A stretch of DNA of 64,000 nucleotides, from assembly GCA_951640195.1 (NCBI GenBank), contig OX621175.1, positions 310,001 to 374,000 on the forward strand, in the 5' to 3' direction. This document shows positions 26,320 to 54,231 of the stretch, piece after piece. The stretch is from Porpolomopsis calyptriformis (Eukaryota > Basidiomycota > Agaricomycetes > Agaricales > Hygrophoraceae). A program made the position numbers and the translations under genes. Positions within the stretch are counted from its first letter, which is position 1. The number at the start of each line of letters is the position of its first letter. A model generated the notes under the pieces. That model worked only from the letters and a program-made list of their open reading frames with translations, made no database searches and was not told the DNA's origin.

Positions 26320-29300
26320 CTCAATTCAAACAGGGATGGAAAAGTCGAGGGAAGTTTAATAGGTTAAATATAGTAGAAGAGGATGTTAGAACAATGGAGA
26401 ATATCAAGAGGAGGTATATGATAGAATTGGAGAATATTGTACTTGAGAGGAGGAAGAAGAGGGAGAAGTGGGATGCCAGAGATCAAGAGGCTTATCTTGG
26501 AAATGATTATTTATTTCCAGATCTGATTTGGGGATGGGATAGCTCTGAAGGGAAGGGGAGCTTTCAAAAGAAACCAAAATTCAGTTACTGCAATAGCAGC
26601 TATTGCAGACACAGTAGCAGATGGCTACAGCATTAGCTGCTAAGGATTTAGAGATTAGTCAACTAAGGGTGGCTGGGAGCTAGGGATGTGGTTTCCTTCT
26701 ATAGGTACATATAGTGTGTTAGCAGTTGGCAGCTCACTTAGGGTTAATGGCACAGGTTACAGGTTATATAGGGTTAAGTGTTTAGGGTTAGGTGGGTTAT
26801 TATTTCTAATAGTTTTTCAGTTTATAACTTTCAATAGATTTGATCACAACATTAGACTACTCAGTTGTATTCTACCCAAGAGGTCTCTAGATAAGTTGAA
26901 CAAAGTGTAAGCTAAGACATATTGTAACCTAGTGTGACATGTGGTCGCCTACACAATAATGTCTGAAAAATGCTATATTAATCCAGCTCTTTACCAAGTA
27001 ATCTAATTCAGAGCCATGCTCCCTAATATGTCCACTTGAACATGTTACTCCTATTCAGGCTTTCTGTATCTTTGCCAGTTCATCCACACAAATTGTTGAA
27101 AAGGTTAGGGATTATCTATAGCAGCCATTGATATCATCATTGATAGTGTGCGCAGTATAATGACTAACTGATTCTCTAACTAACATTCCTACTCTCAAAT
27201 CACAAACAAGGTTTATGCTGAAAGCAGTAGGCCCTCATTAAGCTTCCTCCAAATTGAGGTGTTCACATCTAGAAGAGCTTGGTTACATTGAAGGTTAACA
27301 GTTTTTTCCTCAGCTAGTTTTAGTAAGTTTTCTGGATGTCTTGGTGCATGCTTGTCATTATACTGATTCAATCTACCAGCAACTTTCACTTTCTATTCCA
27401 CATTGTTTTGCAGGCCCACAGAGCTCTGGATATGCCAACACCCAAGAGTTACAGATTGAACTGTTGAAAGATGTGTGGTGGTGGTAGTGGTCATAGTGAG
27501 TGTTGCATCACATGCTTATGTTTGTTTGTTTGTTTTGAACTATTGCACATGTAATACATCTCTCATATCAAGCCACCATTGATCAAGTTGTACCTCACAG
27601 AAACTGGCTATTTTGGACAGTTTAGAAGGGTACCCAGAATCAAACCCTCTGACAGAATTCAAATGGGTGGTATACTAGCTTGATAATCAAAGTTTCAAGT
27701 TGGACCAACTTGCTTGAGTTGATAATATGCTTGTTCAAATCTTGTTTGAAAAGAAAGGGAGGCCAATATACTACAACATACTACATTGTGCATGTATTGG
27801 AGAAGGAGTTCCCCTCTTGCAAGAAACTGCCTACAGGATAGCCAACTTGTACTATCAGGTAATAGACTAGGATAAGCCCTCATTGGAACAGTGTAAATCT
27901 GTTGTAGGTGTGCTATGCTTGGATTATGGATTTGATAGTTAGGATGAGGGGCTGATTACCTAGTAAGTGATTTTGAATAGTATTCTTGCATGTGCACACA
28001 TGTGGGGGGTTTACTATTGATAACAGCTACTAGCCTTTTACTATGATATTTCCTTCTTTACTCCAAACACAGTCTAATAGGAATTAATAATATTTTGTTT
28101 GATGGGAAAACAGTGACTGTGGGTCTGAAAGTCAGATAGAAGATTCTAGCATTGACCTGCCTGCTTTCTGCATTAAGTTCAATGTCATCTGATATTATAG
28201 AAGGTAGTAGACATTCTGTGATTGTGTTATCCTTGAGATAGAAGGGAGAACATAGACAGTGAGTTATACTTGGGCCATTCCAGTTTGCGAATCATGATTG
28301 CAAACTGAATTCTCAGGTAATGTATTTTTAATACAAAATGAATCTAGGCTAAGTGAATATTCTAGATATACCCTATTAAGGATTTACATGCAATGACAAT
28401 ACTAATGCTACAGGAAATTGAAGTTAGAGAGCTAATAACAGTGGCATATACTGCCCAAGGCTATTATGATGAAAGAGAATCCTGCAGGTATTCCTCTTAC
28501 AGACCAGAGGCACCTCCTGGACAAATCTGACCAGATTTGAGGTAAAGAATCTACATCTTTGATAAACTTAGACTAACTACACCCTTTGTAGTGCAAACAT
28601 TTATAGTCTCCACTCCCACCCAGAGGTATACTATAGAGGACTGTATTGGATATCCACTTTCATTTGGGTTTGGCCTCTAATTGATAAAATCATCTCAGCC
28701 TCATTCAAGTTTGACATCATTTGCAACTTAGACTTGATTGCCTAAGATAAAACTAAAACCTATTGGCCAATAACTCAAATACTACAGGAATGTGGAGAGG
28801 TCAATGTGAACACTATCTTGAAATGTGAAGGTAGCAACTGTTGCAATCATCATATTTTCAGAAACACTGTAAAAAGCTTGGAGATCACCTAATGTCTCCA
28901 AGAGAATGGAGGCAATAACTAGTTCCAATAGATAGTTCAAACTTTAGTTCCCAAACTCAAAAGGTTTGGTGAACTCAGAACATTCCTGGTTGGTAGCCAG
29001 TTTATCCACATGCTTTCAACCACATTCATTGAAGACACCCAATAGGATGTGGTCCTATTGGAGGCCCACAACTCATTGGCTGAAATCAAGCAAGTCTCCC
29101 AAATAATCACAAAGAATTGTATACTAAACAAAATTTAGAGAACAAATAGATACTTTTGAGGAAGACCCTGGTGACATGCATAAGGTTTGGCATTAGGAGG
29201 GTAGAACCCTCTTAGAATAGGAAGCTTCAAAGTGGGAATTTAAACAATTTGTCTAGATAACTCTAGATGAACTAATCAAGATCAAGAAATCCCACACTAG

Positions 29301-31538: not shown

Positions 31539-31817
31539 TTCACCTCCACAAAAAGGAAATTTGTCCCAAATTTTGAGAAGACCCTTCGAAGCGAAGGAAG
31601 GATGTCAAGGGGAGGTGTAAAGGGATAGTAGAGGTGGGTAGAGGGGTGATGAGATGGGTGAGTGATGAAGAGGAGGGATGAGTGGATAGTTGTCGGATCA
31701 AAGACTATCCACTGGGTATACTTTTCCTCAACTCTCCAGTAGATATCACCTTCTCTAACCACACATCCAGAAGGGAGGCGTAAGGAATACTATTCGTTTG
31801 GGAACAACATCCGGTCC

Positions 31818-32510
31818 CTAGGTCGCGCCATCATAAACTGGGGGTTGAAGCAGGTGTCCATCTGGGTCAAACCAGTGGTAACGGCTGTCCAACTCCCGGG
31901 CACGTCGCAACCAAGTTTCAGCCAGCTCCCTACACATCATAGCATTCTCCTCCAGGTCAAGGATCCTTTCGTACTTGGCATCCATCATCGAGCGGTACCC
32001 GTTCCAGGTAGTATAGAGTTAGTTGGCAATGCGATGGATGCGGTGCGAGATGGGGTCTTCGGGGATAGTGGGGGTGGTGACGTCGGATTCGTCCTGGTCC
32101 GGTATAACTATCAAAAGTTGGTGCCCAACTTGGTATGCCTCCAGCCAATCTTCAAGTTGATTCTTCTTGTCATCAAAGTCGCTGTCCTTGTTGAACGTGT
32201 ACCAGTGATAGTCGTAGTTGAGCTCGCATCGACGTGCTCCAGAGATAAAAGGGATGTAGGTTTTGGGGCACCCAGATAGGTGCTCAACCTTAGCAAAGGG
32301 GAGCCCTCGGTAGTTATGATTTCATCCCAGCTTGTCAATGGTATTGGTACGTCGTCTTGGCTTCTTGAACTGTCGGGTCACAAAGACGCTGTCAGACAAG
32401 GAAGAGGAGGAAGAGGAATCAGGGGGAAGGTTGGAGGTAGAAGCAGTGGGGTTCCCTTGGGGTGGACGCCTCCCAGTCGACTTGCAGGTGTAACGAACCT
32501 CGCGGGGCAT
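31818..32510 (-). pseudogene. Ty3-F third ORF downstream of pol, unknown function
   Basis: ATG 32510 to TAG 31818-31820, 231 codons including stop, interrupted only by TGA 32322-32324 (Arg position) and TAA 32019-32021 (Gln position). N-terminal third is Ser/Pro- and Arg-rich (SSSSSSLSDSVF; KKPRRRTN), suggesting nuclear localisation. The rest has YHWYTFNKDSDFDDKKNQLE and a Met/Glu/Leu-rich likely helix (MMDAKYERILDLEENAMMCR). It starts 114 bases after the pol stop and ends about 280 bases before the LTR. The long frame, broken only by transition-type stops, argues it was a real protein. No family recognised; no membrane segment or signal peptide as an envelope would have. Confidence 0.65.
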
Positions 32511-32624
32511 TTCATGCTTCTTTTGATGATTGTTGGAAAGGGGAAGTCCTTATAATTGTTGGAGATTGAAAAGGAGAAAAGGAGATTCAACGATCGTGAT
32601 GTCGGTAGTATTCGTAAAGGAGGG

Positions 32625-35600
32625 TTAAGTCGCCGCTTGAATAGACTTTTCATAATTCATCAAGACGTCTTTTGCGTGCTTGAGGTTCCATCATGGTTCC
32701 CAGGTGGCTGCCTCTATCAGGTAGCCTTTCCACTTGATTAGGTATTGTCGGTTCCGTTTTCCTGGGGTGTGATTCAGAATACATTCCACTTCATACTCAG
32801 GCTCTCCTTCGATCACATCCAGAGGTGGTTGGAGATTGTCATCTTCTCCGATCGGGGGGTGGAGATCAAGATTCTCTTCTAGAGCCTTGAGTAACGAAAC
32901 GTGAAACACGGGGTGAATCCTCCATAACAGTGGTAGCTTTAGTCGGTAAGCCACAGGTGATACTTGTTTTAGGATTATAAAAGGTCCAAACTGGCGGACA
33001 TCCAGTTTCTTCATGGGCTGGCCAGTTTTCAAATTCTTGGCATCAAGCCAGACCCTTTGTCCTTCATAAAATGTGGGTTCCTTTTGATGTTTTCGATTGG
33101 CATAGAGCTTCATTGAGTTAGCGGTCTTTTGAAGAGACTCTTCAGCGTTCTCTCTAGCTCTAGTAAGCTGCACGTAAAACTCATTGGCATTGGGATTTGA
33201 GGTTTGGGTTGGAACTGATAAGGGGGTGTGAGGGTGTCGGCCATATTCAAGCCAGAAGGGGGATTGGTGAGTGGAGGAATGTTCTCGGTTGTTATAAGCG
33301 AATTCCGCTGGAGCTAACCAATCTTTCCAATTGTCTTGCATGAAGTTAGTGTAGAGCCGTACGTACTGCTCTAACTCTTGATTGGTTCATTCAGTTTGTC
33401 CATCTGTTTGGGGGTGATAGGCGGTAGAAAGCCCAGAAGTGGTTCCTAGGAGTTCATTTAATGACGTAGCGAATTTCAATGAGAATTGGGTTCCTCGATC
33501 AGTAATGATCTTCTCTGGCCATCCATGGTGCTTCCAGATATGTTCTTGAAACAGCGCAGCAGTTCCTTTAGCAGATAGGTTTCCAGTTGTTGGGATGAAG
33601 TGAGCCTGTTTGGTGAATCTGTCTACCACAACTAGAATGGCATCAAATCCTTTTGAGTTAGGGAGTTCCATGATAAGATCAGCAGTGATCTGTTGCCACG
33701 GTTTAGTAGGAGGGGGTAACGGTTGGAGAAGTCCAGTGGGTTTCTGTGGATAAACCTTGGTCTGTTAACAAGCAAGGCAGAACTTCACATAATTGGTGAT
33801 ATCTTGTGGGGTACCTTCCCATGTGTAATTACGGAGGAGCAGTTCCTTCGTCTTCTCAATGCCAGGATGGCTACCAGTGGGTGTGTCGTGGGTCAATCGA
33901 ATAATTTCTGTGCGCAAAGATACGTCCTTTAGCACAACTATACGATCTCCAGCATTGCGCACAATGCCATCTACGTAGGTGTATCCGGAAGAGGGATCTT
34001 CAATTTTGGCCATGATCTTGAGGGGTAGGGGGGAATGAAAGCAAAGCTTGGATAAAAAGTTGGGGGATGATAAACTGATAATCGCATTGATGAAAAGTGC
34101 ATTGACAAAAAGTTCTTTTGGCAGAAGGACCTTCTCCTCCACCTCCTCATAAGACTCTGGGTAATGATCTGGACATTTGGAGAGTCCATCAGCCTTATTC
34201 TTGATCCTAGGCTGGTAGCTGATTCTGAACCAAAAGCGAGCTAAAAACTCAGACCATCTAGCCTGGCATCTGGAGAGTTGATGACTGGTCATGAAGTATT
34301 GGAGGGACTGGTTATCAGTCTTGATCATAATGGGCTGTCGTGTCCCTTGTAGGAGGTATCTTCATTCAAGGCAGATAGGATAGCCAAAAGCTCTTGGTCA
34401 TGGGTGGGGTAATTTCGTTCAGCTGGGAGGAGGGTCTTGGAGTAGAAGCTAATAGGGTGCCAATCTTCTTCGTCATTCTCCTTCTAGGTCAAGACTGCAC
34501 CTAGTGCAACACCAGAGGCATCCGTCTCCAGAAGGTAAGGAAGATCTGGTTTCGGGGTCCTCAAAACAGGAGTAGAGGTAAGCGCATTCTTGAGGGTATC
34601 AAAGGCACGTTGTTGCCTAGGGGTCCAAATCCATTCTTGATCCTTTCATAGGAGCTCATTGAGAGGACAAGCAATCAGGGAGTAATCCTTGATAAACCTT
34701 CGCCAAAAGTTAGCAGTGCCAAGGAAGGATTGGAGATCTCGTTTCTTCTGGGGGATAGGCCAGGTTCTGATTGCCTCAACCTTCTTGGGGTTAATAGCAA
34801 TGTGGCCTTTAGAGATCATCATCCCCAGATAAATCACTTCCTTTTTCTCGAACTGGCACTTGACGGGTTTGCAGGACAGTTGATTCTTCTCCATGATCTC
34901 TAGAGTTCATTCCGTCCAATAGGTGAGTTCGTTGAGGTCCTTTCCCATGATCAAGATATTGTCAATATAGATGTGGACCTGTTTGGAATCGATAACCTCT
35001 TTGAAGAGAACATCGATCATTTGTTGGAAGGAGGCAGGTGAGTTTTGCATTCCAAAGAACATAACGGTGGGCTTGAACAGCCCTCATCGAGTGTTGAAGG
35101 CTCCTTTCCATTCATCTCCTTCTTTGATGCGAATATTGTTAAAGCCCCATCGGATATCCATGACTGTGAACAGTTCCGCTTCTGATAACTTGGTCTGTTG
35201 AATGATCTCAGAGATGAGAGGTAAGGGATAGGCGTCTGGGATTGTGTGAGCATTCAGATAGCGATAGTCTTGGATTGGACGTAGTCCAGCATCTTGTCCT
35301 TGGGCATTAACTTCTTCACCTTTGGCAGCAAAGAAGAATGAGGCAGCTTGTTTGGAGTTTGATCATTGTATTCATCCACTTGCAAGTTGTTCCTCCAGGA
35401 ATTCATTCAGCTTTCCTTGTTCGTACTCAGTGAGTTTGTACACCTTTCCGATCTTAGGTCTAAAGGTAGGTTCGAGATCAATTGCATGGTCAAATTCTGG
35501 TCGTCATGGGGGAAGTTCATCGAAGGTAGTCTTCATAAACACCTTCCAGTGCCTCCAGTATTTCTTCGGCACATACTTCTTCATATCTTCCTCCACAGTA

Positions 35601-36208
35601 GTGGGTCTTGCATGGTCTCCCAGTGAGACCAATCTAATAATCTTGGCATAGGAGTCGCCATTCAACGTAGAGCCTACTCGTGATACTATCACTCCAGCCT
35701 GAGAAGTCTTGGTTGGGGCCACAGTCTGACGTGAAGTCAGTGTTCCAGCCTTCCAGTCAACCAGGGGATCATTATGTTTGAGCCACAGGTAGCCGAGGAT
35801 AACCTGTATCATATCTCCTAAATTTGTCACTTCCAAATGGGTTCGTTCCCTAGGAAAATCCGGCGTCTCCATCCACAGGTCTACAGCATATTCAATGGGA
35901 CCTCCTCGGTTGTCTGTCCCATCTGCGTTCTACATGGGGATTGGTCCTTCCAATCGATAAAAAGGGATATTGCGTTCCTGCATGAAGTTCCAGTTTATAA
36001 AGCATCTAGAGGCGCCAGAGTCTATCAATGCACTGGCAGCAATTCATCTACCAGTGTCTGTGGTTTCCAACCAAAGGGGGATGGTTAAAGCTTCTTCGCT
36101 CGAATCAAGTGCACCAAGAATTTGGGAAATAGATTGCATAGGGATAGTGGTACACATAGAAAAGGAGTCCGCAATGCCCAAGCTATTGTCCAGACTGTTC
36201 AAAAACCC
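32625..36208 (-). pseudogene. pol: Ty3-F pol polyprotein, near-complete
   Basis: Protease IDSGAS near 36020; RT with RPIQDYRYLNAHTIPDAYPLP and the catalytic box YIDNIL (34953-34970, second Asp changed to Asn); RNase H with ETDASGVALG; a small indel near 34365 shifts the frame inside RNase H; then KTDNQSLQYF and NKADGLSKCPD. Integrase: HPGIEKTKEL zinc region, DLIMELPNSKGFDAIL, ITDRGTQF, QTDGQTE. Linker and chromodomain (EYEVECILNH ... YLIKWKGYLIEAATWEP) finish at TAA 32625. In-frame stops include a TAA after the integrase CLAC motif, TGA after QTDGQTE, and TGA 32691 in the chromodomain, all C-to-T type. Order and chromodomain make it a chromovirus. Confidence 0.9.
36199..36208 (-). promoter_or_regulatory. 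Ty3-F -1 ribosomal frameshift site
   Basis: Minus strand reads CAG GGT TTT TGA at the gag end: the heptamer G GGT TTT fits X XXY YYZ exactly and sits directly before the gag stop. Slipping back one base gives GGG TTT TTG AAC and enters pol, which is open in that frame. The same sequence occurs at 11053-11062 (Ty3-C) and 17594-17603 (fragment). Function is inferred from the fit and the conservation. Confidence 0.75.
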
Positions 36209-37599
36209 TGTTTCTCCAAAGCTCTCTTCAGCTCTTCTTTCCTCTTAGGCTCCCAGTTGACGATACCACACTTCTCGAAATCTTGACGAGAATCTTCATT
36301 GGAGTTGACCTCCTCAATTGAGGCTGAGGTCTCCAGAACTTGAATGTTTCTCCCTCGACTAGGTTTCTTTCCTCCATGACCTCTAGCTGCTGGGGTGAAG
36401 GAGCGGCTTCCAGAACCAGAAGTACTCATCCTAGGAGTATTGGGACAAGAACTGGCAAAGTGGCCAAATCGTCTACAGTTGAAACATGCTCCTTTGGGAA
36501 TTCCTCCTAGTGAAGCAGGCTTTTCTTCTTGTTTGATTCTAGGGGCAGCAGGGTTGGAATAGGTGGAGGGACCAGCAGGTGGTCCTTGTCGGTAGGGGGT
36601 GTTAGTGATGCGAGTGTTGCGAGTCTGGGGCTTAGAAGACGTTCTAGCCAAAAATTCTTGATGTCGCCTGTCAAGTTCAGCAGCACGAGACTGCCATTCA
36701 AAGAGGGTGGTGGGTTGATGATCTGAGAGGTAGATCTGTCGCAAAAGGGAGGGGTTGAGTCCGTCTTTATATAAAGTCATTGAAGCTTCTTGTCCGTATC
36801 CAGTATCATGGGCCCATCGATTGAAATTGATGTTGTACTCCTCTGCACTCTTGTTGAACTGCTTGACGTCCTTGATCTTCAGTTGAGCAGTTGACTTGGG
36901 GTCCAAGTCTCCAAAGTCTTGGGCAAGGGCTTGTTCAAAGACAGCCCAATCGGCACCAACCCAGTTCAACATTGTGTAAGCATCTACTTGACGCTCAGCC
37001 CATAGTTCTGCATTTCCTCTGATTATAAACGACAAGGCATAGATAATCTTGTCGGCCTCTGAGATTCCTGGTTGTCCCAAATGGTTCAGCTTCACTTGAC
37101 GCAGGAAATTGCGAAGCTTGGTGGGGTCACCAGAGAATTCATCAGGAGGGTTCATCTTGATCTTGGCGGGGGCAGGGGCAGGGGCAGGGACAGGGGCAGG
37201 GGCAGGGACAGGTTGGGGGAATACTGGGGGTGCTTGGAAGGGTTGGGGAAATAGCCCAAGAGGGGCAGGGACAGGCTGGGGGCCTATGAGGTTAGCCATC
37301 AATACTTGAAGTTGTTGTTCGATTCTATAACTCACTTGCGCTTGGTCTTGTTGGACCTGCAGCAATTGTTGATAATCCTGCTTCATGATCTCGAAGGCTA
37401 CATGTGGATCTTCTTCTTCATCCTCATCATTATCCTCAGCTTGACCTTTCCCTTTTATGTGAGAGGGACCTGCTTGTTCTTCTTCTTCTTCTTCTTCTTA
37501 GGCAGGATCAACCGTCTCATCATAGAAGGGAGCTGGGGCAGGAGGGAGAGAGCCTTCCTGGGAGAGAGGGATAGTGGATGATGAACAAGTCAGAACCAT
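36199..37599 (-). pseudogene. gag: Ty3-F gag, one premature stop
   Basis: From ATG 37599 to TGA 36199-36201, with a single in-frame TAA at 37498-37500 (a CAA-to-TAA change). A shorter open frame starts at ATG 37386 (395 codons). Features in order: acidic N-terminus with poly-Glu; Gln-rich stretch; a Pro-Ala-Val repeat from a GGGGCA microsatellite (37165-37215); capsid domain (MNPPDEFSGDPTKLRNFLRQ through HDTGYGQEASMTLYKDGLN); a perfect zinc knuckle CFNCRRFGHFASSC near residue 290 of the shorter frame; basic Arg/Gly tail. It packages the element RNA into virus-like particles. It ends EKQGF at the slippery site. Confidence 0.88.
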
Positions 37600-37767
37600 T
37601 GGTAGAACAGTGGCAGTTGGATATTGGGGGGCTTGACGGGAATACAAGGGGAGAGAGCAAGCCTAATCGATGTTGATGTCTGGGTGGTGAAATTGATCTG
37701 GTGGGTGAAGACCTTCAGTGCTGGCCAGACAGAGTAGAGGTTGTATAGTGTGGAGTGAGCAAGAAGG

Positions 37768-37779
37768 AAGTCTGTTTCT
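37768..37779 (-). promoter_or_regulatory. Ty3-F primer-binding site, self-priming type
   Basis: Minus strand AGAAACAGACTT directly after the 5' LTR. It is a perfect 12-base complement of AAGTCTGTTTCT in the LTR at 37879-37890, about 25 bases past the TATA box. This is the Tf1/sushi arrangement, in which the folded mRNA 5' end is cut and used as primer. Confidence 0.8.
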
Positions 37780-38138
37780 TGTTAGACGGCAGTCTAGGGT
37801 TGATCGCAAGGTTTTACTTCAGGCTCTGGGTGTAGGGTTTTAAAGGGTTGGAAGACTACTGATTGGGGTGTTAATGAAAGAAACAGACTTATCCTAAGTC
37901 TATCTACTACTAGCTTTATATACTAGCTAAGTATGAGTCATACTGACTACGTGTGAGTCGTAATGACTATAGATGAGTCATGTAGATAAGGAGAGTGATG
38001 GTGGACTAAATATAGATATGGCTTGGTCACCTTGTATTACTAAGCGGAGCTTGGGTGGCTAAGCGGTTATTGATGTAAACTGTCTGATGTAAATGGGAAT
38101 AGATGAGTAAAGGAAAAAGAAAAAATATATCTCTGACA
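37780..38138 (-). repeat. Ty3-F 5' LTR
   Basis: Partner of 31180-31538, same termini. TATA box TATATAAA on the minus strand at 37915-37922; transcript-start segment AAGTCTGTTTCT at 37879-37890, complementary to the adjacent primer site. More CpG sites survive in this copy than in the 3' LTR. Confidence 0.95.
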
Positions 38139-38143
38139 TTAAC

Positions 38144-39681
38144 TATAATTTCTTCTACCTGGAACTTTCACTAACATGAGTTCCTTCAACTAACCTTTTG
38201 CCTTGGTACCTCTAACTACCCTGTTTCTGCTTTTTTGGTATCAGCGGTACTAATAATGAACCTAGTGTAGACCTACCTTAGTTAGATTTATCCAGGAGGT
38301 GCCTCTAGTCTGCAAGAGGAATACCTGCAGGATTCTCTTTCATTGTAATAGCCTTGGGCAGTATATGCTACTATTATTAGCTCCCCAACTTGAATTTCCT
38401 GTAGCATTAGTATTGTTATCGCATGTGAATCCTTGATAGGGTATATCTAGAACATTCACTTAGCCTAGATTCATTTTGTATTAAAAATATATTATATAAG
38501 AATTCAGTTTACAATCATGATTCACAAACTGGAATAGCCCAAGTATAACTTGCTGTCCATGTTCTCCCTTCTATCTCAAGGATGATACAATCACAGAATG
38601 TCTACTACCTTCTACAATATTAGATGACATCAAACTTAATGTAGAAAGCAGGCAGGTTAATGCTGGAATCTTCCATCTTGCTTTCAGACCTGCATTTCCC
38701 ATTTTCCCATTGAACAAAATCTTATCAATTCCTATTAGACTGTGGTTGGAGTATAGAAGGAAATATCATAGTAAAAGGCTAGTAGCTGTTATCAATAGTA
38801 AACCCCCCATGTGCATGCACATGCAAGAATACTATTCAAAATCACTTACTGGGTAATCAGCCCCTCATCCTAACCATCAAATCTGTAATCTGAGTATAGC
38901 ACACCTACAACAGATTTACACTGTTCCAATAAGGGCTTATCCTAGTCTATTACCTGATAGCACAAGTTGGCTATCCTACAGGTAGTTTCTTGTAAGAGGG
39001 GAACTTCTCTAATACATGTACAATGTAGTGTGTTGTAGTACATTGGCCTCCCTTTCTTATCAAACAAGATTTGAACAAGCATATCATCAACTTGAGCTAG
39101 TTAGTCCAACTTGAAACATTGATTGTCAAGCTGGTGTACCACCCATTCAAATTCCATCAGAGGGTTTAATCCTGGGTACCCTTCTAAACTGTCCAAAATA
39201 GCCAGTTTCTATGAGGTACAACTTGATCAATAGTGGCTTGACATGAGAGATGTGTTATGTATATAATAGTTCAAAACAAACAAACAAACACAAGCATGTG
39301 ACACAACAATCACCATGACCACTACCACTACCACCATATGTCTTTCAACGGTTCAATGTGTAGCTTTTGGGTGTTGGTGCATCTGGAGCTCTATAGGCCT
39401 ATGAAACAATGTGGAATGGAAAGTGAAAGTTGCTAGTAGATTGAATCAGTATAACAACAAGCATGCACTAAGATATCTGGAAAACTTACTAAAACTGGCT
39501 AAGGAAAAAACTGTTGACCTTCAATGTGACCAAGCTCTACCGGATGTTCACACCTCAATTTGGAGGAAGCTTGATAAGGGCCTACTACCTTCAGCATAAA
39601 CCTTGTTTGTGATTTGAGACAGTAGGAATGTTAGTCAGAGAATTGGTTAGTCATTATACCGCACACACTATCAATGATGAT
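38144..39681 (-). pseudogene. R3, downstream half of the R gene family
   Basis: Reverse-complement match to R1 about 27125-28560 (for example the GAGGTGCCTCT segment near 38300 and the run through GTAGGCCC near 39570). On the minus strand it is the C-terminal half of the unknown gene. It is separated from its upstream half (45219-46589) by the RQ element, and from R2 by Ty3-F. Confidence 0.55.
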
Positions 39682-39690
39682 ATCAGTGGC
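39682..39690. repeat. RQ target-site duplication (with 45210-45218)
   Basis: ATCAGTGGC on both sides, exact. R3 sequence reads continuously across the site if the element and one copy are removed, matching R1. Confidence 0.9.
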
Positions 39691-39816
39691 TAGTCTCGTT
39701 CCCAGATCTCTGTTCATACGGACCATTCCGGTCGGACTGTGAAAATAAATTTCAGCCTACGATGACAGAGAGTCTGGTGAGTTTTAATAGAGCAGGTGTA
39801 GGTAAATAGCACGTGA
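39691..39816 (+). repeat. RQ left terminal inverted repeat
   Basis: Pairs with 45082-45209. Best-conserved blocks: the tip TAGTCTC.TTCCCA, a core CATACGGACC.TTCCGGTCGG at 39716-39735 followed by TGTGAAAA, and an inner block TCTGGTGAGTTTT ... CACGTGA. The core contains an ACCGTTCCGGT-type inverted motif that could be a protein-binding site. Confidence 0.85.
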
Positions 39817-39916
39817 GGTAATACTCCCTGTTATCTATGGCTTGATCGAGTCTTGCTGAGTGAAAGAACAACCTATCCTGAGTGCTACGCCTGCTGGACA
39901 TACCCTGCGGCACTCC

Positions 39917-42328
39917 ATGGATACTCTAGAGGCTTTCTGCGCTGCTGCTCAAGTGTCCTGAGGCTATGATTACTTGTCTGTGTGTAAGGATATCGAGGAA
40001 ATGTTCAAGGGCGCGTTTGCTGGGAAGCCGCCATATTCATAGCAAGTGGACGTTACAGAGGCACTCCTTCTTGGCCTAGACTGTCTGGTAATCGCTGGAA
40101 CTGGTGCTGGAAAGACTATGCCGTTCATCATGCCGCTCCTTGTTGACAAATCAAAATCAAAACTTGTTATCATTATTTCACCTCTGAATGAGCTGGAACT
40201 TGAACAGGTATGTATCTAAATGACTCCAATAGATCAAGGTCGAAAACCTGACCCATCAAGGCCGCAAAATTCCAATCGATGGGGCTTACTGCGACTGCAG
40301 TTAATGGAGACATATACATGCCGCAACTTCACAAGGTAAGGTCTTTATTTCCCTCTGAATCATATTTCTACTTATTCAACAACAGGATATTGAAAATGGC
40401 AAGTACCAGGTCCTTATAACATCACCTGAGATGTGCCTCGATCACCCCCGTTTCTCCAAACTCATACGGCTTCCGGATTTCATGAAGAATGTCTTAGCAA
40501 TTATTGTTGACAAAGCGCATTGTATATCTCACTGGGGCGACAAGTTTCGACCTAAATACAGTGATCTCGGAAGGCTTCAATCTTTTGTTTCTTGCTGGGT
40601 CCCTCTCCTGGTGACGTCTGCAACATTGCCGCCCCACATTCTTGACGATGTCAAGCTGCAACTACATTTCTCACCATCTCGGACTTTTCTAGTGAATCTT
40701 GGCAACGATCGGCTTAATATTACACCAATTCTCTGTCGAATGCGAGCCGCTGCTAAGGACTTAGCGGCATTGAATTTTCTTGTGGATGAAGCCTTTTCTG
40801 GATGGCCTTTGATCAAGACAATCGTTTTCTTCAACACTTGTGAGCTTGCCCAAGATGCATGCGAGCACCTCCGGAATCTCGTACCAGAAGATGTCAAGGA
40901 GAAGATTGACTTCTTGCATGCCTTTCGGGTCGCTCGCACAAAGTCTAAGATTATGAAAAACTTTAAAAGCAGCACCGTCAACATCTTATGTGCAACTGAA
41001 GCTGCAGGAATGGTGAGTATTTCAATATTCTAATGCGATATATTCATTGCTACCCAATTTACAGGGGATGGACATCACTGATGTGTGCCGGGTTGTGGGA
41101 TACATGGTCCCCTTCTCACTCTCTGTCTGGACCCAGCGGCTTGGTCGCGCAGGACGATCTGGCGCACCCGCAGTTGTCATCCTACTGGTCGAGCCATCAG
41201 TCTACAAGCTAAAAAAGTCGAAAACAAGCACACCTACGAATAAGACCAAAGAAGTAAAAGACTTCAAGCCCACCCTCGACGCAAACGGTGACATCATAAG
41301 CGAAGATGATGAAGGTGATGAAGACGAGCAAGACCTGAATGGGCAGCTCACTGAGGTGGACTTGCAATACTAGAAAAAAGTGGAGGGGGGTATGCGGAGG
41401 TGGATTGAAGCACCCCGGTGTAGACAAGAGGTTGCAAATGAATATTTTCATAACCCCATCTCAACAATCGGTAAGTCTTTTGATTCATTTAATCACTATA
41501 TTAAGGTTCTGTAACTAACAATTTGCAGAACTTACCGTCCCTTGTTGTGACCTTTGTGTCCATCGCAAGGTCAATGAAAACGTCTTTCTTACGCCTGCTG
41601 AGACGCAGATCCTAGCCCTACAAAAACGGATCGATACGCGTGAGAGTCGAATATCGATTCCAACAGCTGTGATTGTGGTCAACGACGATGATGAAAGGAT
41701 GAACAACCCCATTGGGGAGGGGATCGTTGCAGTGGAGAATCCAAACAAACGCCGTGAACCAGGACCTCGTTGCGGAGAATAGAGGGACACCTGTCGAACC
41801 ACACTCCTGCAATGGAGATCCCGAAAGTTCTCAGCCGACTTCAAGCAATGTGTTTTCGCACCCACTATCATTTTACCTGACGCGATAGTAACAAAACTAG
41901 CTACCCTTGCCAAAATCAAAACTATTGACGATATCAAGATGTTGATTCTAGAGTGGGAATAGGCTGACGAATATGGCGACGAGGTCTTGAAGATTCTGCA
42001 ACCAGTTGAGGTAGAATGGCATGAGGAGAATGAATGAAAGAAGGATGAAGCAAAATCAAAGCGAGCGAAGATTAGCGCTCAAACTAAATTAATGCGGGAC
42101 GAAAACCAACTTGCAGAAGCACGCCTGGCGACGCTCCAATGGAAGATGGCATCGTACCCACCAATCCTGCAGCCTGCATACCCGTTCGCTTTCCACAATT
42201 CACAACCGATTACTCCCCAGTACCCTATATATCACCAGCCCTATTCATATCCATATCCTGTCTATAGTTACCCCCCTCACACATACCCTGAGCATACACA
42301 GCACATGTTTCCCATACCATTCACATAG
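39917..42328 (+). pseudogene. RQ gene 1: RecQ-like ATP-dependent DNA helicase, lightly decayed
   Basis: Superfamily 2 helicase; 3'-5' unwinding is known for RecQ. Motif I AGTGAGKT near 40095-40120; motif Ia VIIISPLNELELEQ; motif II DKAH at 40509-40520 (DEAH expected, Glu to Lys by G-to-A); motif III VTSATLP; motif IV KTIVFFNTCELAQ; motif V ILCATEAAGM; motif VI QRLGRAGRSG near 41134. Cys pairs after it (MRRWIEAPRC, VPCCDLC) fit a RecQ zinc-binding region. The C-terminus is Tyr/Pro/His-rich. Introns: 40336-40385, 41013-41064, 41471-41528, plus one starting 40208 with unclear acceptor. Stops lie at an expected Trp near 40038, at 41371, and three further sites. Start ATG 39917 is the first in frame. 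In RQ it probably assists excision or repair of the element. Confidence 0.82.
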
Positions 42329-42390
42329 CATCATCAACAATAGAATAAATTATTTCATACCATTATCAGAGAGTGATTACATTAAAATAT

Positions 42391-45038
42391 TCACCAGTTC
42401 TCCCCTTTTGACCAGCTAGACATATGAGATGATGCCCATTTCACCATCACCTTCCTCAATTTCACCCATTCTGAGCCAATAGCCATCACATCTTGTAGTT
42501 TGTCTTTTGCGTTGAGTTTTCGATTGGGATTATGAATGTGTATCTTTGAATGGCTGTAGGCAGACTGCAATCGTCAGATGTCATTCTCTTTGTCTGGGGA
42601 TGTGTGAGATTTCCCGCAGTTGAAGTGGTTGACAGTGCACTCAACGTGATCTTTGACTTTGCGCTGACAAGGTATCATCTCTGAGATTTTACCGATGTGT
42701 TCCCATTCCGCAAACGGCCCTATGACCGAGAATGTGTGCTACAAACAGACACAGTTAGTTTCCAGTTCATAGGTAGAGTAGTCACATACCTTGATATCTC
42801 ACACATTATGTTCTTGTATGAGATCGATTGGCTGAAATCCATCTTGTTGTCCAGTCATATTTGCAAGCCAACAATATCTTTTGATGAACATCCTAGGGAA
42901 GAGAAGTAAGCTGAGGGATTAAAGATATTGAAATTTACCTGAGATCATCAGGCCATTCACGGTGCAACCCTTGCAAAAGCTCTAATATTTCGGTCATGTA
43001 GTTCTTGTTTCCACCTCCGATAAACCGAAACAGGAGCCTCGGGAGATGATCTTCCATGGAACCGATGTCGCCTGTCTTCATGCTATTATCGAGATCCAAG
43101 TAGTCTAGCAAATCCCGTGCCATTTGTATTGATTGGTAGAGTAGGTCGTCCTTTGGGTCCTTGGATTTGTTCTTCAAATCGTGTGCTGCGAGTGTTCGAA
43201 GCCTGTCACTTGAAGCATATTCGCTGACAATGCAATTAGCCAGCTTGGAGAGTTCCTGAGGCGTCAGGTCCCTCAGGTCTTCAAGCTTGTCCACATTGCC
43301 AACAACACACCAAAGGTCACGAATACGGGCCTCGGCAATGTGGGACAAAGCTTCTTTTAGGTGGTGATGGAAGGTTCCTTGGATACTTGGTGAATTTAGG
43401 CCCTTCCGCTTGAGTAGATTGAACGCATGGACAAGGCCAAAGCCAGCTTGTGTCCCATAGTATTGAGCATGTAGCGAGTGCTCAAAAGCCATTTGCGCAT
43501 GAAACCAACTGAAGACGGGCTTTAAGAAAGCCATCCAATCGAAGGAATTGAGTTCCTTTGACCGAAACTTTTGGAGGCCGCGCAGCCGGCAAACCGTTAG
43601 CTGGTTGCCTACCCAGGGAATGACTGACGATTCACCCAGTCGTTTTTGCTTGGCCAGTGATTCAAGCCCAAGTTGCCGCCACCATTCTCAAAGAACTCGG
43701 TCATTTCCTTCATATGAAGCTTCCTCAATGTGGACGGTATCGAGCATATACGTGCAGGTAGTGTATTGGGGGCCGATGGGAAGTAGTTGAGGAGAGTTAG
43801 GATGGGTGAAGACTTTGTCGTCCTTATGAGTGTACATGGGGAAGTCGAATGCCGGAGAAGACGTTAGAATCTGTAGAACAATATGTATTATACGGGCCTC
43901 AATTCGTTTTGATGCTTGTATTTCTAGCTTGATGACATCTTTCAGACCTATCGGATTTTTTGCACCAAGTGCAGTTTGATCCTGTAAGCGAAGACAGTCT
44001 GGACAGGCAGCAGTGGGATCCTTAACGATGAAGATGGTTGCAGCGGTTCCACTATCAAAGTGGCTTTGATTCTGAATCCGCTGCTCGTAGACCCTGAAAG
44101 GGAGGTTGATATTGTCGTGAGTACTGAACCAGGGAAAACGTTGGATATCTTGAATGAGTGATGAATGCATCATATTTGAAAGCGCCTTGATCCCGTCGTA
44201 GGCCCACTTTTGACTCATCGTGATCCCAAGGGCATGGAGGGTATCGAATGCCTTCGTTGCGAGCCCACAGCTCTTGAAATAGACTGTAAGGAGTTTGGCG
44301 AGTTTGCAGTAACAGTTTGAGCGAGACAGGGATGCAATGGAGATCATCATCATCACAGGCTGTGTGCTACAGTCAGCAAAATCGAGTAGAGGTGATAAAA
44401 TACTAACATACCACTTCGGAACTCTGCTGAGCATCTGAACAATTGCCCGCCGCAAACTGAAATAGATTCCATATTGTCGGGACAATGGTCTTCATCTGAG
44501 AGATCATCTCCTTCAGATTAATAGCAAGGAGCGTTTCTTGTGAGAGGTTTTCCTGTCGCAGGTATAGCGCAGTCTTGATTTGTTTCATTTCATTGTTGAT
44601 CACACTGCAAATGGTATCCAAAGCCCAGGAGTTGAGGACATCGTAGGCTGCTTTTGTCCGCATTCCACAGCCATGCTTGCGAGGTGGGTGGTGCCAATTT
44701 GCAAGGATCTGGGGGAGTTCCTCACTGACCATGAGAGTAGTTCGCGCGTATCTGACTTTGCTGTTAGACACGAGATCATCGACATTCCAGCTGATCACCC
44801 AGAGAAATAGTGGGAGATTGATTTGGAGGGAGTCCATATAGTCTAGTATCTTGATGACTCTTTCAGAAATATCGCCAGTTCTCTCAAGAAACGACCTGTA
44901 GTTCTCCGTCTGCTTTGTATACGTGCTAGCGTTGTGATTTTGCTGGTATTTGTCATTCTGAGCGGGAATATCATCAAGTCCTGAGTCCATCGATGAGCTT
45001 GTATTGGTGCGTGAGGGTCTCATGGCTACAGTAAACAC
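42391..45038 (-). pseudogene. RQ gene 2: DUF6589-like protein, candidate transposase, lightly decayed
   Basis: Minus strand, ATG 45038 to TGA 42391-42393, introns 44367-44411, 42893-42938 and 42739-42789, all GT-AG. Family-like blocks, from memory of DUF6589 proteins: TQPVMMMISIASLSRSN and FKSCGLATKAFDTLHALG, THDNINLPFRVYEQR with HFDSGTAATIF, VGNQLTVCRLRGLQKF (where the family has GDQLT), a Phe/Trp/His-rich block FLKPVFSWFHAQMAFEHSLH, HHHLKEALSHIAEARIRDLW, and a C-terminal Cys/His block (CQRKVKDHVECTVNHFNCG). One in-frame TGA near 43688 at an Arg codon, and a few in the last exons. The acidic residues in the DN-IN and GDQ blocks could form an RNase H-like active site, but this is inference. 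About 820 residues in total. No other enzyme in RQ could move it. Confidence 0.72.
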
Positions 45039-45081
45039 TCAAACAAGGGGGGATATGAGGAGGGAGATTATGGATATTGGA

Positions 45082-45209
45082 TCACGTGTGGTTTATCTAC
45101 ACCCGCCTCTACAAAACTCACCAGACCCTCCAGCAGCGTATGATGAAAATTCTTTTCACACTCCGACCGGAACGGTCCGTATGCGGCCAAGGGTATGGGA
45201 ATGAGACTA
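45082..45209 (-). repeat. RQ right terminal inverted repeat
   Basis: Reverse complement of the left repeat, roughly 75-80% identical by eye over 128 bp, ending GAGACTA at 45209. Confidence 0.85.
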
Positions 45210-45218
45210 ATCAGTGGC

Positions 45219-46589
45219 TGCTATGGATGATCCCTAACCTTTTCAACAATTTGTACAGATGAACTAGCAAAGATATAGAAAGCCTGAATGGGAGTAACAT
45301 GTTCAAGTGGACATGTCAGGGAGCATAGCTCTGGATTAGATTACTTGGTGAAGAGCTAGATTAACATAGCATTTTTCAGACATTATTGTGTAAGCAACTA
45401 CATGTTACACTGGGTTACAATATGTCTTAGGTTACACTTTGTTCAACTTATCCAGAGACCTCTTGGGTAGAATACAACTAAGTGGTCTAATGTTGTGATC
45501 AAATCTGTTGAAAGTTATAAACTGAAAATTTGTTAGGAATAATAACCTACCCAACTCTAAATACTTAACCCTACATAACCTGTAACCTGTAACCCGTACT
45601 TATACCTATACTATTAACCCTACCTAACCTAACCTGTAAATCTAACCTATGAATCTAACTAACCTATACTTATTACCTAATGGCTAACCTGGAGGATAAC
45701 CTGTAACCTGTAACCCTAAGTGAGCTGCCACCTGCTAACACAATATATGTACCTATAGGAGAAAACCACATCCCTACCTCCTAGCCACCCTCAGTTAACT
45801 AATCTCTAAATCCTTGGCAGCTAATGCTATAGCTATCTGCTGCTATTGCAGTAACTGAATTTCAGTTTCTTTTGAAAGCTCCCCTTCCCTTCAGAGCTAT
45901 CCTATCCCTAAATCAGATCTGGAAATAAATAAAAATTTCCAAGATGAACCTCTTGATCTCTGGTATCCTACTCCTCCCTCTTCTTCCTCCTCTCAAGTAC
46001 AATATTCTCCAATTCCATCATATACCTCCTCTTGATATTCTCTATCATTCCAACATCCTCTTCTACTATATTTAACCTATTAACCTTCCCTTGACTTTTC
46101 TATCCCTGTTTTAATTCTAATATGGGCCTAAACTCTTTGCTTGCCATGATATCCCAGATCATGCTTGCAAACCAGTAGAGCATTGTATTTCTATGATGGT
46201 TATATTGCCACTCTTCAGAGCTCACCACATCTGATAGTATCGCAAACTTGATGATTTGTGGGGGCTATTCAAACATTATCAACTATAATGGTGGAATACT
46301 TGAAGAGTAATGTTATATATCTCTTTGTTCCATTGTGCAATATTCTGATACAATCTTGAGCCTTGACACTACAAGCCATTATTTTGGATGAATATCTAGA
46401 GTTTTCTGACTAGTGGGGTTTTAGGGCCACAATCCACTAGTAGATACATCTCGTGGGCCTAGTCTCTAGACACATGTTTGACCCTAGCTACTAAAAACTC
46501 ATAAAGTTTGCTGTTGGTGCATTTGCAATACATCAATTCTTTGATGGTCAATGTAGAGACACATTCATCTAACATCTTGATTCAAGTAG
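45219..46589 (-). pseudogene. R3, upstream half of the R gene family
   Basis: Continues R3 right of the RQ element: matches R1 26320-27120 as a reverse complement and R2 29590-30970 in the same orientation. The minus strand has the CIKMLDECVSTLTIKELMYC block, the coiled coil (about 46060-45950) and the TAACC-rich stretch (45550-45720). At 46589 it is cut by a family-X LTR before the family start codon. Confidence 0.55.
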
Positions 46590-47339: not shown

Positions 47340-47340
47340 C

Positions 47341-47602
47341 TGTTAGGATGTGATGATCTCCTCTGTATAGAGTAGTACTGGTTTGTACCAGTCCAAAGTT
47401 GTGGCTGATTTGTTTGTTCTTATATGGTCAAAAATGCATCCAAAGTCTCTGGTGTCAAGCTCACTACTCCTTAGTATTGACAGTGAAGCTTGACACCAAG
47501 TTAGTCACTCCCTGTATTTGTATCACTATATATTATTAGTATTGACAGTGAAGCTTGACACCAGGTGTGGTTCTTAAGGCAGTTAGCTTCCAGCCTTGAT
47601 AG
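47341..47602 (+). repeat. Copia-1 5' LTR
   Basis: 262 bp, TGTTAGGATG to CAGCCTTGATA. Nearly identical to 54232-54492 (minus) and 57635-57892 (plus). Contains a duplicated segment GTATTGACAGTGAAGCTTGA (at about 47476 and 47537) and an inverted relative, GGTGTCAAGCTCAC, which can form a hairpin. It ends in TA rather than the usual CA. Confidence 0.88.
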
Positions 47603-47620
47603 GTTATGAGCCCTGCTGCA
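47603..47620 (+). promoter_or_regulatory. Copia-1 primer-binding site, half-tRNA(iMet) type
   Basis: GGTTATGAGCCCTGCTGC directly follows the LTR. Its complement ends AGGGCTCATAACC, which is the anticodon stem-loop sequence of fungal initiator tRNA-Met as I recall it, not the tRNA 3' end. Priming from a cleaved initiator-tRNA half is known for Drosophila copia and some fungal Copia elements. Confidence 0.78.
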
Positions 47621-48740
47621 AATTTCACCTAAAATCACCCCCTATTGTGTCTAACAGCTCCTGCATACTCCTGGACCATTACAAACCACTCTCCAGACCT
47701 CTCACCAGCACCAGCAACATAAATCACCCTGGTCCTCACCCAATTGTCACTCCCTGACTTCGAAACTTTTGGGGCCATTTGCGGACGCTCCCTTCTGCGC
47801 CTCCACCCAATTACATGTTGCTGGCTTGATTTCCCTTGCCAGGACATCCCATTCAATTATCCACATCACCATTCACCATCTGTAATAGGCCTACCCATCC
47901 CAATCCATCCCAGTGACTGCCAGCTCATTAGTGGGCACTTGTGGACACTTGTGGGTGCTTGTTATCAACTCCATTCATTGTGGCCATTTGTAACAGCCCC
48001 ACCACTCCAAACCACCATTCTGTGATCTGACACATCATTCCTGTGCCCACCAACTCAAATCGCTCCGAATTGCTCCGAAATTGCTTGTGGACGTTAAAGG
48101 CCACGTCCGAATCGGGTCCCCTTGCTTATACGGTTACTGCCTTTGCGGATTATCTGGGAGGGCTCCATCATTATTCACCACTCCTATCTACCTGCTAATC
48201 ATTCCCATTTGTGTTCTATCGCTTCCATTGCTCCCAGGACATTGTAATTGCTTCAAGATACTCTAGGACGTGCCCTCTGTGCTCTGGCAAACATTTGGAC
48301 TCTTGGGACCTCTCTGGACTCTAGGACTTGATCATTCATCAGTCTGTGCTGTGGCTGTCACTGTGCACATTGGTTTATGGAAAGGAGATTAGAACAAAGT
48401 GAAGTGCAGTGAAGTGCTACCTCCCTGGGCTCTCTTATCAGAGTGTTACCCCAGTTGCTATTTGGCTTGGTTTACACCAGTCAGCACCTCTCTCTGCACG
48501 CAGTGTTGTAGGGAGATTGGGTTGGCGGGCTTACAGTTGCCTCCCCTTCCAATTTATTGGAAGTAGCTCCATTATCAACTACCACTGCTAGCACTGATTT
48601 CATCGACTTGAGAATAAGCTGGTAGTATGTGTGAGACCCACAGAAGACTGATTTACCAACCTCACCCTATCCCTGCCATCCACTACGCCTTTATACTCCA
48701 TAATCTATTTTTCACCTACCTACACACCACCATCATCATC

Positions 48741-49673
48741 ATGTCAGCCTCCACCAATGAATCAAAGAGGACATTCCCCTGCCTCACTCCCACTAATTGG
48801 TGGCAGTGGGCTGACAACATGGAGGCTTACCTTCACACCAAAGAGCTCTGGGAGTATGTGGATGGATCTCTGCCTAGGCCTACTGCTGCTGACCCTGTCA
48901 AACCTACCCCTGCTGAAATCACTGAGCTTTAGGGATTGGAACCGGAAGTCTGGAAGAGCTAGTGGAGAGATATGGCTTGCCATTGAGGACAGCCAGAAGG
49001 TGCATGTGAAGGATGCCAAAACTGACCCTGCAGCAATGTGGGCTAAGTTAGAGGCTGTCCATCTGCAGAAGAGACCAGGAACCCACTTCAATGCCTATGA
49101 TGCGCTGTTCAGTATTAGGAAGGATGATGCTGAAACCCTGCCTGCCTTAATGGCTAGAGCTGATAAAGCTCTGCAGGATATCAAAGCTCTCCATCCATCT
49201 AACTTCACACTGGACAACCACCTGGATAAAAGAACTTCTCTGTATGACTCTCATTTGTGCCCTTCCTGCTGAATACAACAACTTTGCATCCTCCCTCCTA
49301 CTCATCAACTCCCTTGATATCGATAAACTCCAATCTGCCTTCCAGAATGAAGAGAGCCAGCAGCTTGCTAGAAATATCTCCTCCTCATCTCCCAGCCTTG
49401 CCTATCAATCATCATCATCTGCTTTGCTTTGCTCCTTCTGTGGTAAAGCCAACCACACAGAGGACAAGTGCTTCAAGAAGCAGAAGGCCTCTGCTGATGC
49501 TAAACAGCAGACAGCCCAATGGCAAGGATGTGGTTGAGGTGCTAGGGGTAGAGGCAACAAGCCTGCTGCAAAAGAAGCATCTGAAGATACCACCAATGCC
49601 AATACTGCCACCATTGAATTTGCTGGTCATGCAAGTACTCTCTCTTCATCCTATTGCTCCCTATGGCTCAAGT
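48741..49673 (+). pseudogene. gag: Copia-1 gag, frameshifted and truncated
   Basis: ATG 48741 (MSASTNESKRTFPCLTP) starts a Copia-type gag. A one-base insertion near 48930 moves the frame, which continues (WNRKSGRASGEIWLAIEDSQ; HFNAYDALFSIRKDD), and a second indel near 49230 moves it again (PAEYNNFASSLLLINSLDID). The zinc knuckle CSFCGKANHTEDKC lies at 49435-49476. At 49673, just before the protease, the sequence is broken by the LTR end of Copia-2. The untranslated leader (47621-48740) is over 1 kb long. Confidence 0.83.
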
Positions 49674-49825: not shown

Positions 49826-52800
49826 ATATAGACCTCTTCTTCAAGTTCACCATTGAGGTAAGCTGAAGAGATATCAAGACTTTCTAATTCAAGGTCTTCA
49901 AGTGCAGCCAATGCCAGGATAAGCTCGAAGTGAAGCCCACTTTGGAGTAGGAGCAAAGGTCTCAGTATAGTCAAATCCAGGTCTTTGGGCAAATCCTTGG
50001 GCCACCACTCTGCCTCTATAGCACTCAATGGATCCATCAGCTTTCCTTTTGACCTTGAACACCCATCGGCTGCCAATAGCTTTGCGGCCAGGTGGGAGTT
50101 GTACAAGTTCAAAGGTGCCATTTTCAATAAGTTTTTGGATCTCATATAAAGCAGCCTTGTGCCATTCTTCCTTCTCTTCAGGGGAGCGCTGCATTGCCTC
50201 ATGGTATGTGTTAGGTTCACCATCATGAGTAGCTGTCTTGAATGCATGCTGAGAAGAGTTGAAGGCATACTCCACTGCTTGGTCCAGAGTAAGGTAATCA
50301 GTCTCTTGACCACTGCACAGATATTCAAATCCAGATTGGATAGCATCTGCATACTCAAGTTCACCATCACTAGGGTCCTTGAGCAGGAGTTCATCATCAC
50401 TGCTAGACTCATTGACTGGAGATAATGGAGGTGAATGCATTTGGTGAGAAGCAGGAGGTGACATTGCAAGTGGGTCAGGAGTAGAAGCAGGTGGAGAAGC
50501 ACTCTTTGGAGTTGGAGAGGGAGTGGATTGGGGAGGCACAGAGGATTGACGACCAAGTAGAGTCTCATTAAGGGAGCCTTGGGGACGACTAGCACGAGGA
50601 GGGTTTTGACGTCTTGAAGGTCCAGGTGGATCAGAGGCAGGTGCCTTATGTGCAGAAGGAACTGGGACAGCAGGAGGTAGATTGGGTCCAGGTATAGGTG
50701 CAATTTGTGGCAAAGGTAGTACTGGATGTGGTGCTGTATCATCACTATGGTCATCCTCTCCCCCTTGATCCAGCACCACTACAGATGGTTCAGAGGGTGC
50801 AGAGCAACCAGGTAACATAGAAGGGGAAGAGACCAGATTTATAGCCACAGTAGAGTTGCCAGGAAAGCACCTTTCATCAAACACAGCATGACTGCTGATA
50901 ATGATCTTCTTAGCCACTGGGTCCCAGAATTTCCATGCTTTCACACCATCAGGGTAACCAACAAAGATGCACTTCCTAGAATGAGGTTGGAGTGCTTTCC
51001 TCTTCTCTTGGCGCACTAGCACATAGGCAAGGCAGCCAAAGATACGGAAGTAAGAGATGTCTGGTTTCTTCCCTTTCCAGTGGAAATATGGAGTGTCTCC
51101 ATTCAAAGCAGAAGTAGGTGTCCTGTTCCTGGTATGCACATAGGTAGAGACAGCAAGTGCCCAAAAGGAGGGAGGGAGTTTAGCCTGAACCAGGAGTGCA
51201 GTGGCAGCAGCAGCAATATCTTCATTTGCGCGCTCAGCTACTCCATTTTGATGAGGTTCATTTGGCTCAGTGTGCTGACGCATGATACTGTGGTCTGCAC
51301 AGAACTGATTGAACTCCCTACTGATGAATTCACCTCCTTTATCATCCCTAGACATCTGAAGGCGTCTTCCAAGTTTGGTCTCAGCATAAGCCTTGAATTA
51401 CTTGAATGCAACAAGAGCTTCTGTTTTACGTCTCAGGAAAGCAATCACCATGAACCTTGACTTGTCATCAATGAAGGGTTGCCAATAATGGTATCCCTCT
51501 GGTGTCTGAACAGGGAGAGGGCCCTTTAAGTCTGTGTGGACAAGTGCAAGAAGAGAGGTTCAACGAGAGGCAGTCTTAGGGATATTATGACGGTGCTGCT
51601 TTCCAAAGATGCATGGCTCACAGATAGGGTCTGGAGATGAGTTGGACTGGATGACCATGCCTGAGACAAGTTTATGGAGGTGCATATGCTTCAAATCACC
51701 AAAGTTAAGGTGAGAGCAACGCTGATGCCACAGAGTAAGATCCAAGGGAAGGGTTGACTGAGCTGACTGAGCTGACTGAGGAACAATGATCTTGCCATCA
51801 AGATAGCTAATATTGCGCTCATTGATGGAGGCAGTGAAATGGAGTTCATTGTGATAATAGAACTCAACTCGAGATTGTTGGATTGAAATGGAATATTGTT
51901 TAACACGAGTAAGGTGGAAGAGTGAAAGTAGATTACTGCCAAGATCAGGGACATGGAGCACATCATGAAATACAACTGGTCGCTTGGGTATACCATCTAT
52001 GACTGGTTGGAACTCAACTGAACCAATACCAGCAGAGTAGATTGTTGAATGGTCAGCTAGTTGAATAGCAGTGACATGGGGAGAATATGAGTGAAACCAG
52101 TGTTTGTGAGGGGTCATATGTGATGTAGCACCTGTATCAGTGTTCCAGTCAGCACAGGATTGAGACTTGAGCCATAGGGAGCGATGGGATGAAGAGAGAG
52201 CACTTGCATGACCAGCAAATTCAATGGTAGCAGTGTTGGCATTGGTGGTATCTTCAGATGCTTCTTTTGCAGCAGGCTTGTTGCCTCTACCCCTGGCACC
52301 TCGACCACGTCCTTGCCATTGGGCAGTCTGCTGTTTGGCATCAGCAGAGGCCTTCTGCTTCTTGAAGCACTTGTCCTCTGTGTGGTTGGTTTTGCCACAG
52401 AAGGAGCAAAGCAGAGCAGATGATGATGATTGGTAGGCAAGGCTGGGAGATGAGGAGGAGACATTTCTGGCAAGCCGCTGGCTCTCTTCATTCTGGAAGG
52501 CAGATTGGAGTTTATCAATATCAAGGGAGTCAATGAGTAGGAGGGAGGATGCAAAGTTGTTGTATTCAGCAGGAAGGGCACGGATGAGGGTCATGCAGAG
52601 AAGTTCTTTATCCAGGTTGTCCAGTGTGAAGTTAGATGGACAGAGAGCTTTGATATCCTGCAGAGCTTTTATCAGCTCTAGCCATTAAGGCAGGCAGGGT
52701 TTCAGCATCATCCTTCCTAATACTGAACAGTGCATCATAGGCATTGAAGCATGTTCCTGGTCTCTTCTGCAGATGGACAGCCTCTAACTTAGCCCACATT

Positions 52801-54213: not shown

Positions 54214-54231
54214 GCAGCAGGGCTCATAACC
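54214..54231 (-). promoter_or_regulatory. Copia-2 primer-binding site, half-tRNA(iMet) type
   Basis: Same 18 bases as Copia-1 on the minus strand, directly inside the LTR. Confidence 0.78.

What the first reader, a model, noticed from the sequence alone, without database searches (positions are those of the whole stretch)
39691..45209. Candidate new DNA transposon pairing a RecQ-like helicase with a DUF6589-like protein
Seen: ~127-bp imperfect terminal inverted repeats starting TAGTCTC, a perfect 9-bp duplication ATCAGTGGC, and exactly two convergent spliced genes filling the interior. Known: RecQ helicase motifs I-VI; DUF6589 is, as far as I recall, an uncharacterised family in Agaricomycetes. 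Inference: the DUF6589-like protein is the transposase and the helicase a mobile-element partner. Helicase-bearing TIR elements of this make-up are not a named superfamily to my knowledge.
Basis: partly seen in the sequence, partly recalled or inferred. Interest (0 to 1): 0.95.

Follow-up and report, generated by a model that had tools for sequence, protein, structure and literature searches.

The report
Decayed AcademH-type transposon with RecQ helicase
This is a worn-out "jumping gene" in what looks like a mushroom-type fungus; it carries a transposase (labelled only DUF6589 in databases) and a RecQ-type helicase, and it fits a transposon lineage, AcademH, that was named in 2020, so it is real but mostly not new.

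The parts
39682..39690 (.). 9-bp target-site duplication, left copy (ATCAGTGGC)
   Evidence: a single copy of this 9-mer (8 of 9 bases) in the empty site
39691..39828 (+). left terminal inverted repeat
   Evidence: score 145 vs at most 43 in controls
39917..42328 (+). broken RecQ-family helicase gene; approximate exons 39917-40207, 40261-40335, 40386-41012, 41065-41470, 41522 or later to 42328; six premature in-frame stops in the frame of homology; motif II reads DKAH where 20 of 20 aligned relatives have DEAH
   Evidence: (53% identity over 98% of the query to P0121); exon borders by eye from homology and GT-AG sites
42391..45023 (-). broken DUF6589 transposase gene; approximate exons 45023-44412, 44359-42939, 42894-42790, 42738-42391; three premature in-frame stops; GNQLT where the D is kept in 62 of 63 aligned relatives
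   Evidence: (PF20231, E 1.1e-67 and 1.5e-11)
45072..45209 (-). right terminal inverted repeat
45210..45218 (.). 9-bp target-site duplication, right copy
26874..27371 (-). unoccupied paralogous copy of the insertion site (inverted relative to the occupied one)

Best explanation
A dead, low-copy DNA transposon of the AcademH type in an agaricomycete-like genome (host inferred from its relatives). How it worked, shown and inferred: the DUF6589 protein is an RNase H-fold DDE transposase (shown as a predicted fold; catalysis inferred). It would bind the inverted repeats, cut at TAGTCTC/GAGACTA and join the ends to target DNA at cuts staggered by 9 bp, giving the 9-bp duplication (the duplication and the empty site are shown). 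The RecQ helicase (family shown) is an element-encoded helper that probably unwinds the element ends or the strand-transfer intermediate for processing or gap repair (inferred). The most likely acidic triad, numbered in P0030, is D302, D472 and E714 (inferred; E670 or E673 remain possible for the third). The window copy is now inactive: its genes carry premature stops and both active sites are changed.
Against: No Academ transposase sequence was available, so homology of DUF6589 to Academ is not shown. Kojima 2020 is not held. No other complete copy was found in this genome, so the ends rest on one element plus the empty site. Foldseek itself gives no match at E 0.001 or better; its best is E 9.6e-3. 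Inverted repeats and duplications could not be checked in other species. 17 of the 38 DUF6589 rows with a same-species helicase in the typed list lay on another contig.
Confidence: 0.86

Rival explanations
1. The element belongs to a separate, unnamed superfamily: the DUF6589 transposase is not homologous to the Academ transposase and has acquired a RecQ helicase independently.
For: DUF6589/PF20231 is tied to no transposon in the held library (no relevant paper); no protein joining PF20231 with an XPG nuclease appeared, but only 10 of the 120 listed rows of 158 hits carried PF20231, so this is weak; no PDB sequence relative.
Against: Duplication length, helicase type, host group, low copy number and domain content match what is stated for AcademH.
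Confidence: 0.1
2. KolobokH: the fungal Kolobok lineage that also encodes a RecQ helicase.
For: RecQ helicase with a transposase, described only from fungi (PMC9587614 passage); next to telomeres in Cladobotryum (PMC10989895 passage).
Against: 9-bp duplication instead of TTAA (TTAA recalled). [quoted passage not shown] Genes lie on opposite strands. The element is about 350 kb from the nearer end of a 1.67-Mb contig.
Confidence: 0.02
3. Mutator-like element (8-10-bp duplication, long inverted repeats) that captured a helicase gene.
For: Duplication length and long inverted repeats fit (recalled traits of MULEs).
Against: No MULE domain: the transposase pieces score only PF20231 above cut-off and lack the shared C/DxxH signature. 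The helicase is a co-diverging partner, not a one-off capture.
Confidence: 0.01
4. Chance inverted repeats around two unrelated genes, or a telomere-linked RecQ helicase locus.
For: No second complete copy found in the genome.
Against: Empty site with a single 9-mer; repeat score 145 against at most 43; pairing of the same two genes in other fungi and as a deleted convergent pair on contig C9; about 350 kb from the nearer contig end.
Confidence: 0.01

Closest known systems
AcademH lineage of the Academ superfamily (Kojima 2020, Mob DNA 11:15; not held, known here from passages of citing papers PMC10045372 and PMC10799480)
   Same: Helicase-encoding DNA transposon, 9- or 10-bp duplications, low copy, Basidiomycota
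   Different: No difference found; homology of the transposase itself could not be tested
Fungal Academ copies of PMC6416283 (2019; one passage seen)
   Same: DEAD-box/recQ_fam helicase domains named as examples of the domains found in most (1,568 of 1,938) Academ copies
   Different: The passage does not mention DUF6589 or the element's ends
KolobokH (PMC9587614, passages seen)
   Same: Fungal DNA transposon with a RecQ helicase
   Different: Different transposase signature and duplication; helicase there lies downstream of the transposase domain, here on the opposite strand
hAT (Hermes) and P-element transposases
   Same: Predicted RNase H-like fold with a large helical insertion before the last acidic residue (insertion in hAT/P recalled); best structural matches
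   Different: Conserved C/DxxH absent; 7-10% identity in the aligned parts of the Hermes rows and 10-11% in the P-element rows; no RecQ partner known to me (recalled)

Membership tests
AcademH (Academ superfamily) | Encodes a helicase (RecQ/DEAD type in fungi) | tested here: met
   definition from passages in PMC10045372, PMC10799480 and PMC6416283
AcademH (Academ superfamily) | 9- or 10-bp target-site duplication | tested here: met
   definition in PMC10045372
AcademH (Academ superfamily) | Terminal inverted repeats | tested here: met
   (that Academ elements have them is recalled)
AcademH (Academ superfamily) | DDD/E transposase | tested here: met
   by predicted fold and conserved acids of homologues; catalysis not shown. 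That Academ encodes one: PMC9587614 passage
AcademH (Academ superfamily) | Transposase homologous in sequence to known Academ transposases | not testable with these tools
   no Academ reference sequence or profile held; Kojima 2020 not held
KolobokH | RecQ helicase with the transposase, fungi | tested here: met
   definition PMC9587614
KolobokH | TTAA duplication (recalled) | tested here: not met
   9-bp ATCAGTGGC
KolobokH | C/DxxH between second D and last E (shared by hAT, P, MuDR, Kolobok, Dada) | tested here: not met
   at most 4 of 63 at any column; rests on the inferred triad D472/E714
MuDR/MULE | MULE transposase domain | tested here: not met
   only PF20231 scores above cut-off; no conserved C/DxxH

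The most novel reading that the evidence does not exclude
DUF6589-RecQ elements are a DNA-transposon superfamily of their own, in which a hAT/P/RAG-like DDE transposase, unrelated in sequence to Academ, transposes only with an obligate, co-evolving RecQ helicase.
Probability: 0.1. Interest if true: 0.7.

Novelty: new member of a known kind. Interest (0 to 1): 0.36.

Why it matters
Pfam lists DUF6589 as a family of unknown function, and the named relatives found here are filed as hypothetical or uncharacterized proteins, their partners mostly as P-loop, hypothetical or 'Bloom syndrome' proteins. Reading DUF6589 as a DDE transposase would re-label hundreds of such fungal genes as mobile-element genes. 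It also gives a clean comparative system for asking what a RecQ helicase does in cut-and-paste transposition.

Tried and rejected
Search for relatives in viral contigs (one peptide pattern) and in bacterial/archaeal genomes (two patterns): none confirmed; the viral fold library gave no match at E 0.001 or better. Sequence search of the DUF6589 profile in the PDB: none. Fused proteins: a joined DUF6589+helicase query found no protein with both domains and no DUF6589-XPG fusion among 120 listed of 158, but only 10 of those rows carry PF20231; it found one DUF6589+PF07690 gene model (P0242), probably a mis-joined prediction. Reading E670/E673 as the third catalytic residue was my first idea; end-of-alignment arithmetic against Hermes, P element and RAG1 (catalytic residue numbers recalled) favours E714. 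Distances in the model could not be measured because no coordinates were available.

Full report
OBSERVATION. The unit at 39691-45209 (5,519 bp) is as described. Its two ends are inverted copies of each other over about 138 nt (109 nt ungapped at 77%), starting TAGTCTC. The alignment score is 145, while 500 shuffled pairs and 200 random pairs of window segments at the same spacing reached at most 43. It is flanked by ATCAGTGGC on both sides; the direct repeat is exact at 9 and at no other length from 4 to 15.

EMPTY SITE. The strongest new evidence is in the same window. The two flanks, joined with one copy of the 9-mer, match 26874-27371 (minus strand) end to end over 500 nt at 90% identity, with a single 9-mer (ATCAATGGC, 8 of 9 bases) at the junction. 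The duplicated flanking sequence is longer: over 1,775 columns there are 1,590 matches, 155 transitions, 18 transversions and 12 gap columns. So the element inserted into one arm of an older inverted duplication and made the 9-bp repeat.

AGE. The observed/expected CpG ratio is 0.73 in the element, 0.28 in the whole window and 0.08 in the left flanking repeat. I infer that the flank had largely lost its CpG sites before the element arrived, so the insertion is young relative to its surroundings.

GENES. Pfam finds DUF6589 (PF20231) on the minus strand in two abutting pieces (E 1.1e-67 and 1.5e-11) and DEAD plus Helicase_C on the plus strand. The layout is convergent. Both genes are broken: in the frames that match relatives there are six premature stops in the helicase and three in the transposase (exon borders set by eye, and the first helicase stop lies in a weakly conserved stretch). 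The window copy also has GNQLT where 62 of 63 aligned relatives keep the D, and DKAH where the aligned helicase relatives are invariant DEAH (20 of 20). This copy is dead.

COPIES IN THE GENOME. In the 33.5-Mb, 17-contig genome no second complete copy was found (the tool's counts of repeats are lower bounds). Found were: a 52-base repeat-end fragment on C12 that matches the outer 59 nt of the left end (83%); and on C9 a transposase N-terminal fragment (36% identity, plus strand) about 50 bp from a helicase fragment (60%, minus strand), that is, the same convergent pair with the middle deleted and two stops in the transposase piece. The PF20231 model itself hits only the window element.

THE PARTNERSHIP. 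Gene numbers are consecutive in three other species: PHLCEN_2v3675/3676, NM688_g3332/g3333 and BN946_scf185016.g48/.g49. One more pair, in Mycena metata, came by eye. Many of these contigs are large, so sharing alone is weak; the consecutive tags and the 10-kb and 16-kb contigs are strong. For 18 unambiguous pairs (two Daedaleopsis and two Crassisporium rows left out as ambiguous), protein distances of the two genes correlate at r 0.88, with 0 of 9,999 permutations as high. Within 8 Mycena and Favolaschia pairs alone r is 0.94 (28 of 40,320 permutations as high). There the two Favolaschia pairs fall into different subfamilies for both genes, which host ancestry does not explain. No single protein with both domains was seen (0 of 120 listed of 158).

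COMPARISON WITH WHAT IS KNOWN. PMC10045372 (passages) states that AcademH makes 9- or 10-bp duplications and AcademX 3 or 4, linked to their helicase and nuclease. PMC10799480 (passages) lists DEAD and Helicase_C among the domains of AcademH, KolobokH or Helitron elements and says AcademH is low-copy in Basidiomycota, Ascomycota and Mucoromycota. PMC6416283 (one passage) says that 1,568 of 1,938 fungal Academ copies contain recognisable domains, naming PF00270 and recQ_fam as examples. PMC8290104 (passages) reports putative nonautonomous Academ elements in a mushroom genome. Kojima 2020 itself was not held; I saw it only in reference lists. KolobokH, the other fungal RecQ transposon (PMC9587614, passages), is disfavoured by the duplication and by the absence of a conserved C/DxxH signature (at most 4 of 63 sequences at any column; 18 of 63 hold one somewhere in the span). 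DUF6589 occurs in no held paper, and PF20231 only in an unrelated optics paper, so the link of the Pfam family to a transposase is not in print in this library by those two searches; the wider literature is unknown to me.

VERDICT. A real, dead transposon, best filed as AcademH with one defining feature (sequence homology of the transposase to Academ) untested. The useful residue is the functional reading of DUF6589 and the co-evolving RecQ partner.

Noticed in passing
L007 (G000 C9:824986-828120), 956-1450 (+) and 1504-1644 (-): Second, internally deleted relic: transposase N-terminal fragment convergent with a helicase fragment; no inverted-repeat end found in the 3.1 kb.
   Followed up: partly
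L003 (G000 C12), 1501-1552: Lone repeat-end fragment (83% to the left end) terminating in GAGACTA, with no partner end found in the 3.1-kb locus.
   Followed up: partly
26323-28531 and 38281-39690 plus 45219-46116: Old inverted duplication, 88-90% identical, with a CpG-poor left arm (0.08 observed/expected) and differences dominated by transitions (155 to 18), with the transposon in one arm.
   Followed up: partly
31180-38140: LTR retrotransposon between that duplication's arms: direct repeats 31180-31540 and 37780-38140 (96%), gag-like ORF 36199-37497 (-) and pol/integrase-like ORFs at 32691-33386 and 33765-34361 (-) (labels by eye).
   Followed up: no
47340-49673 and 52165-54493: 2.3-kb inverted repeat at 95% identity; reading frames near 48618-49537 look like a retrotransposon gag by eye.
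   Followed up: no
P0242 (Phlebia brevispora NM688_g1349): Gene model joining DUF6589 with PF07690 (major facilitator, name recalled), probably a mis-joined prediction.
   Followed up: no
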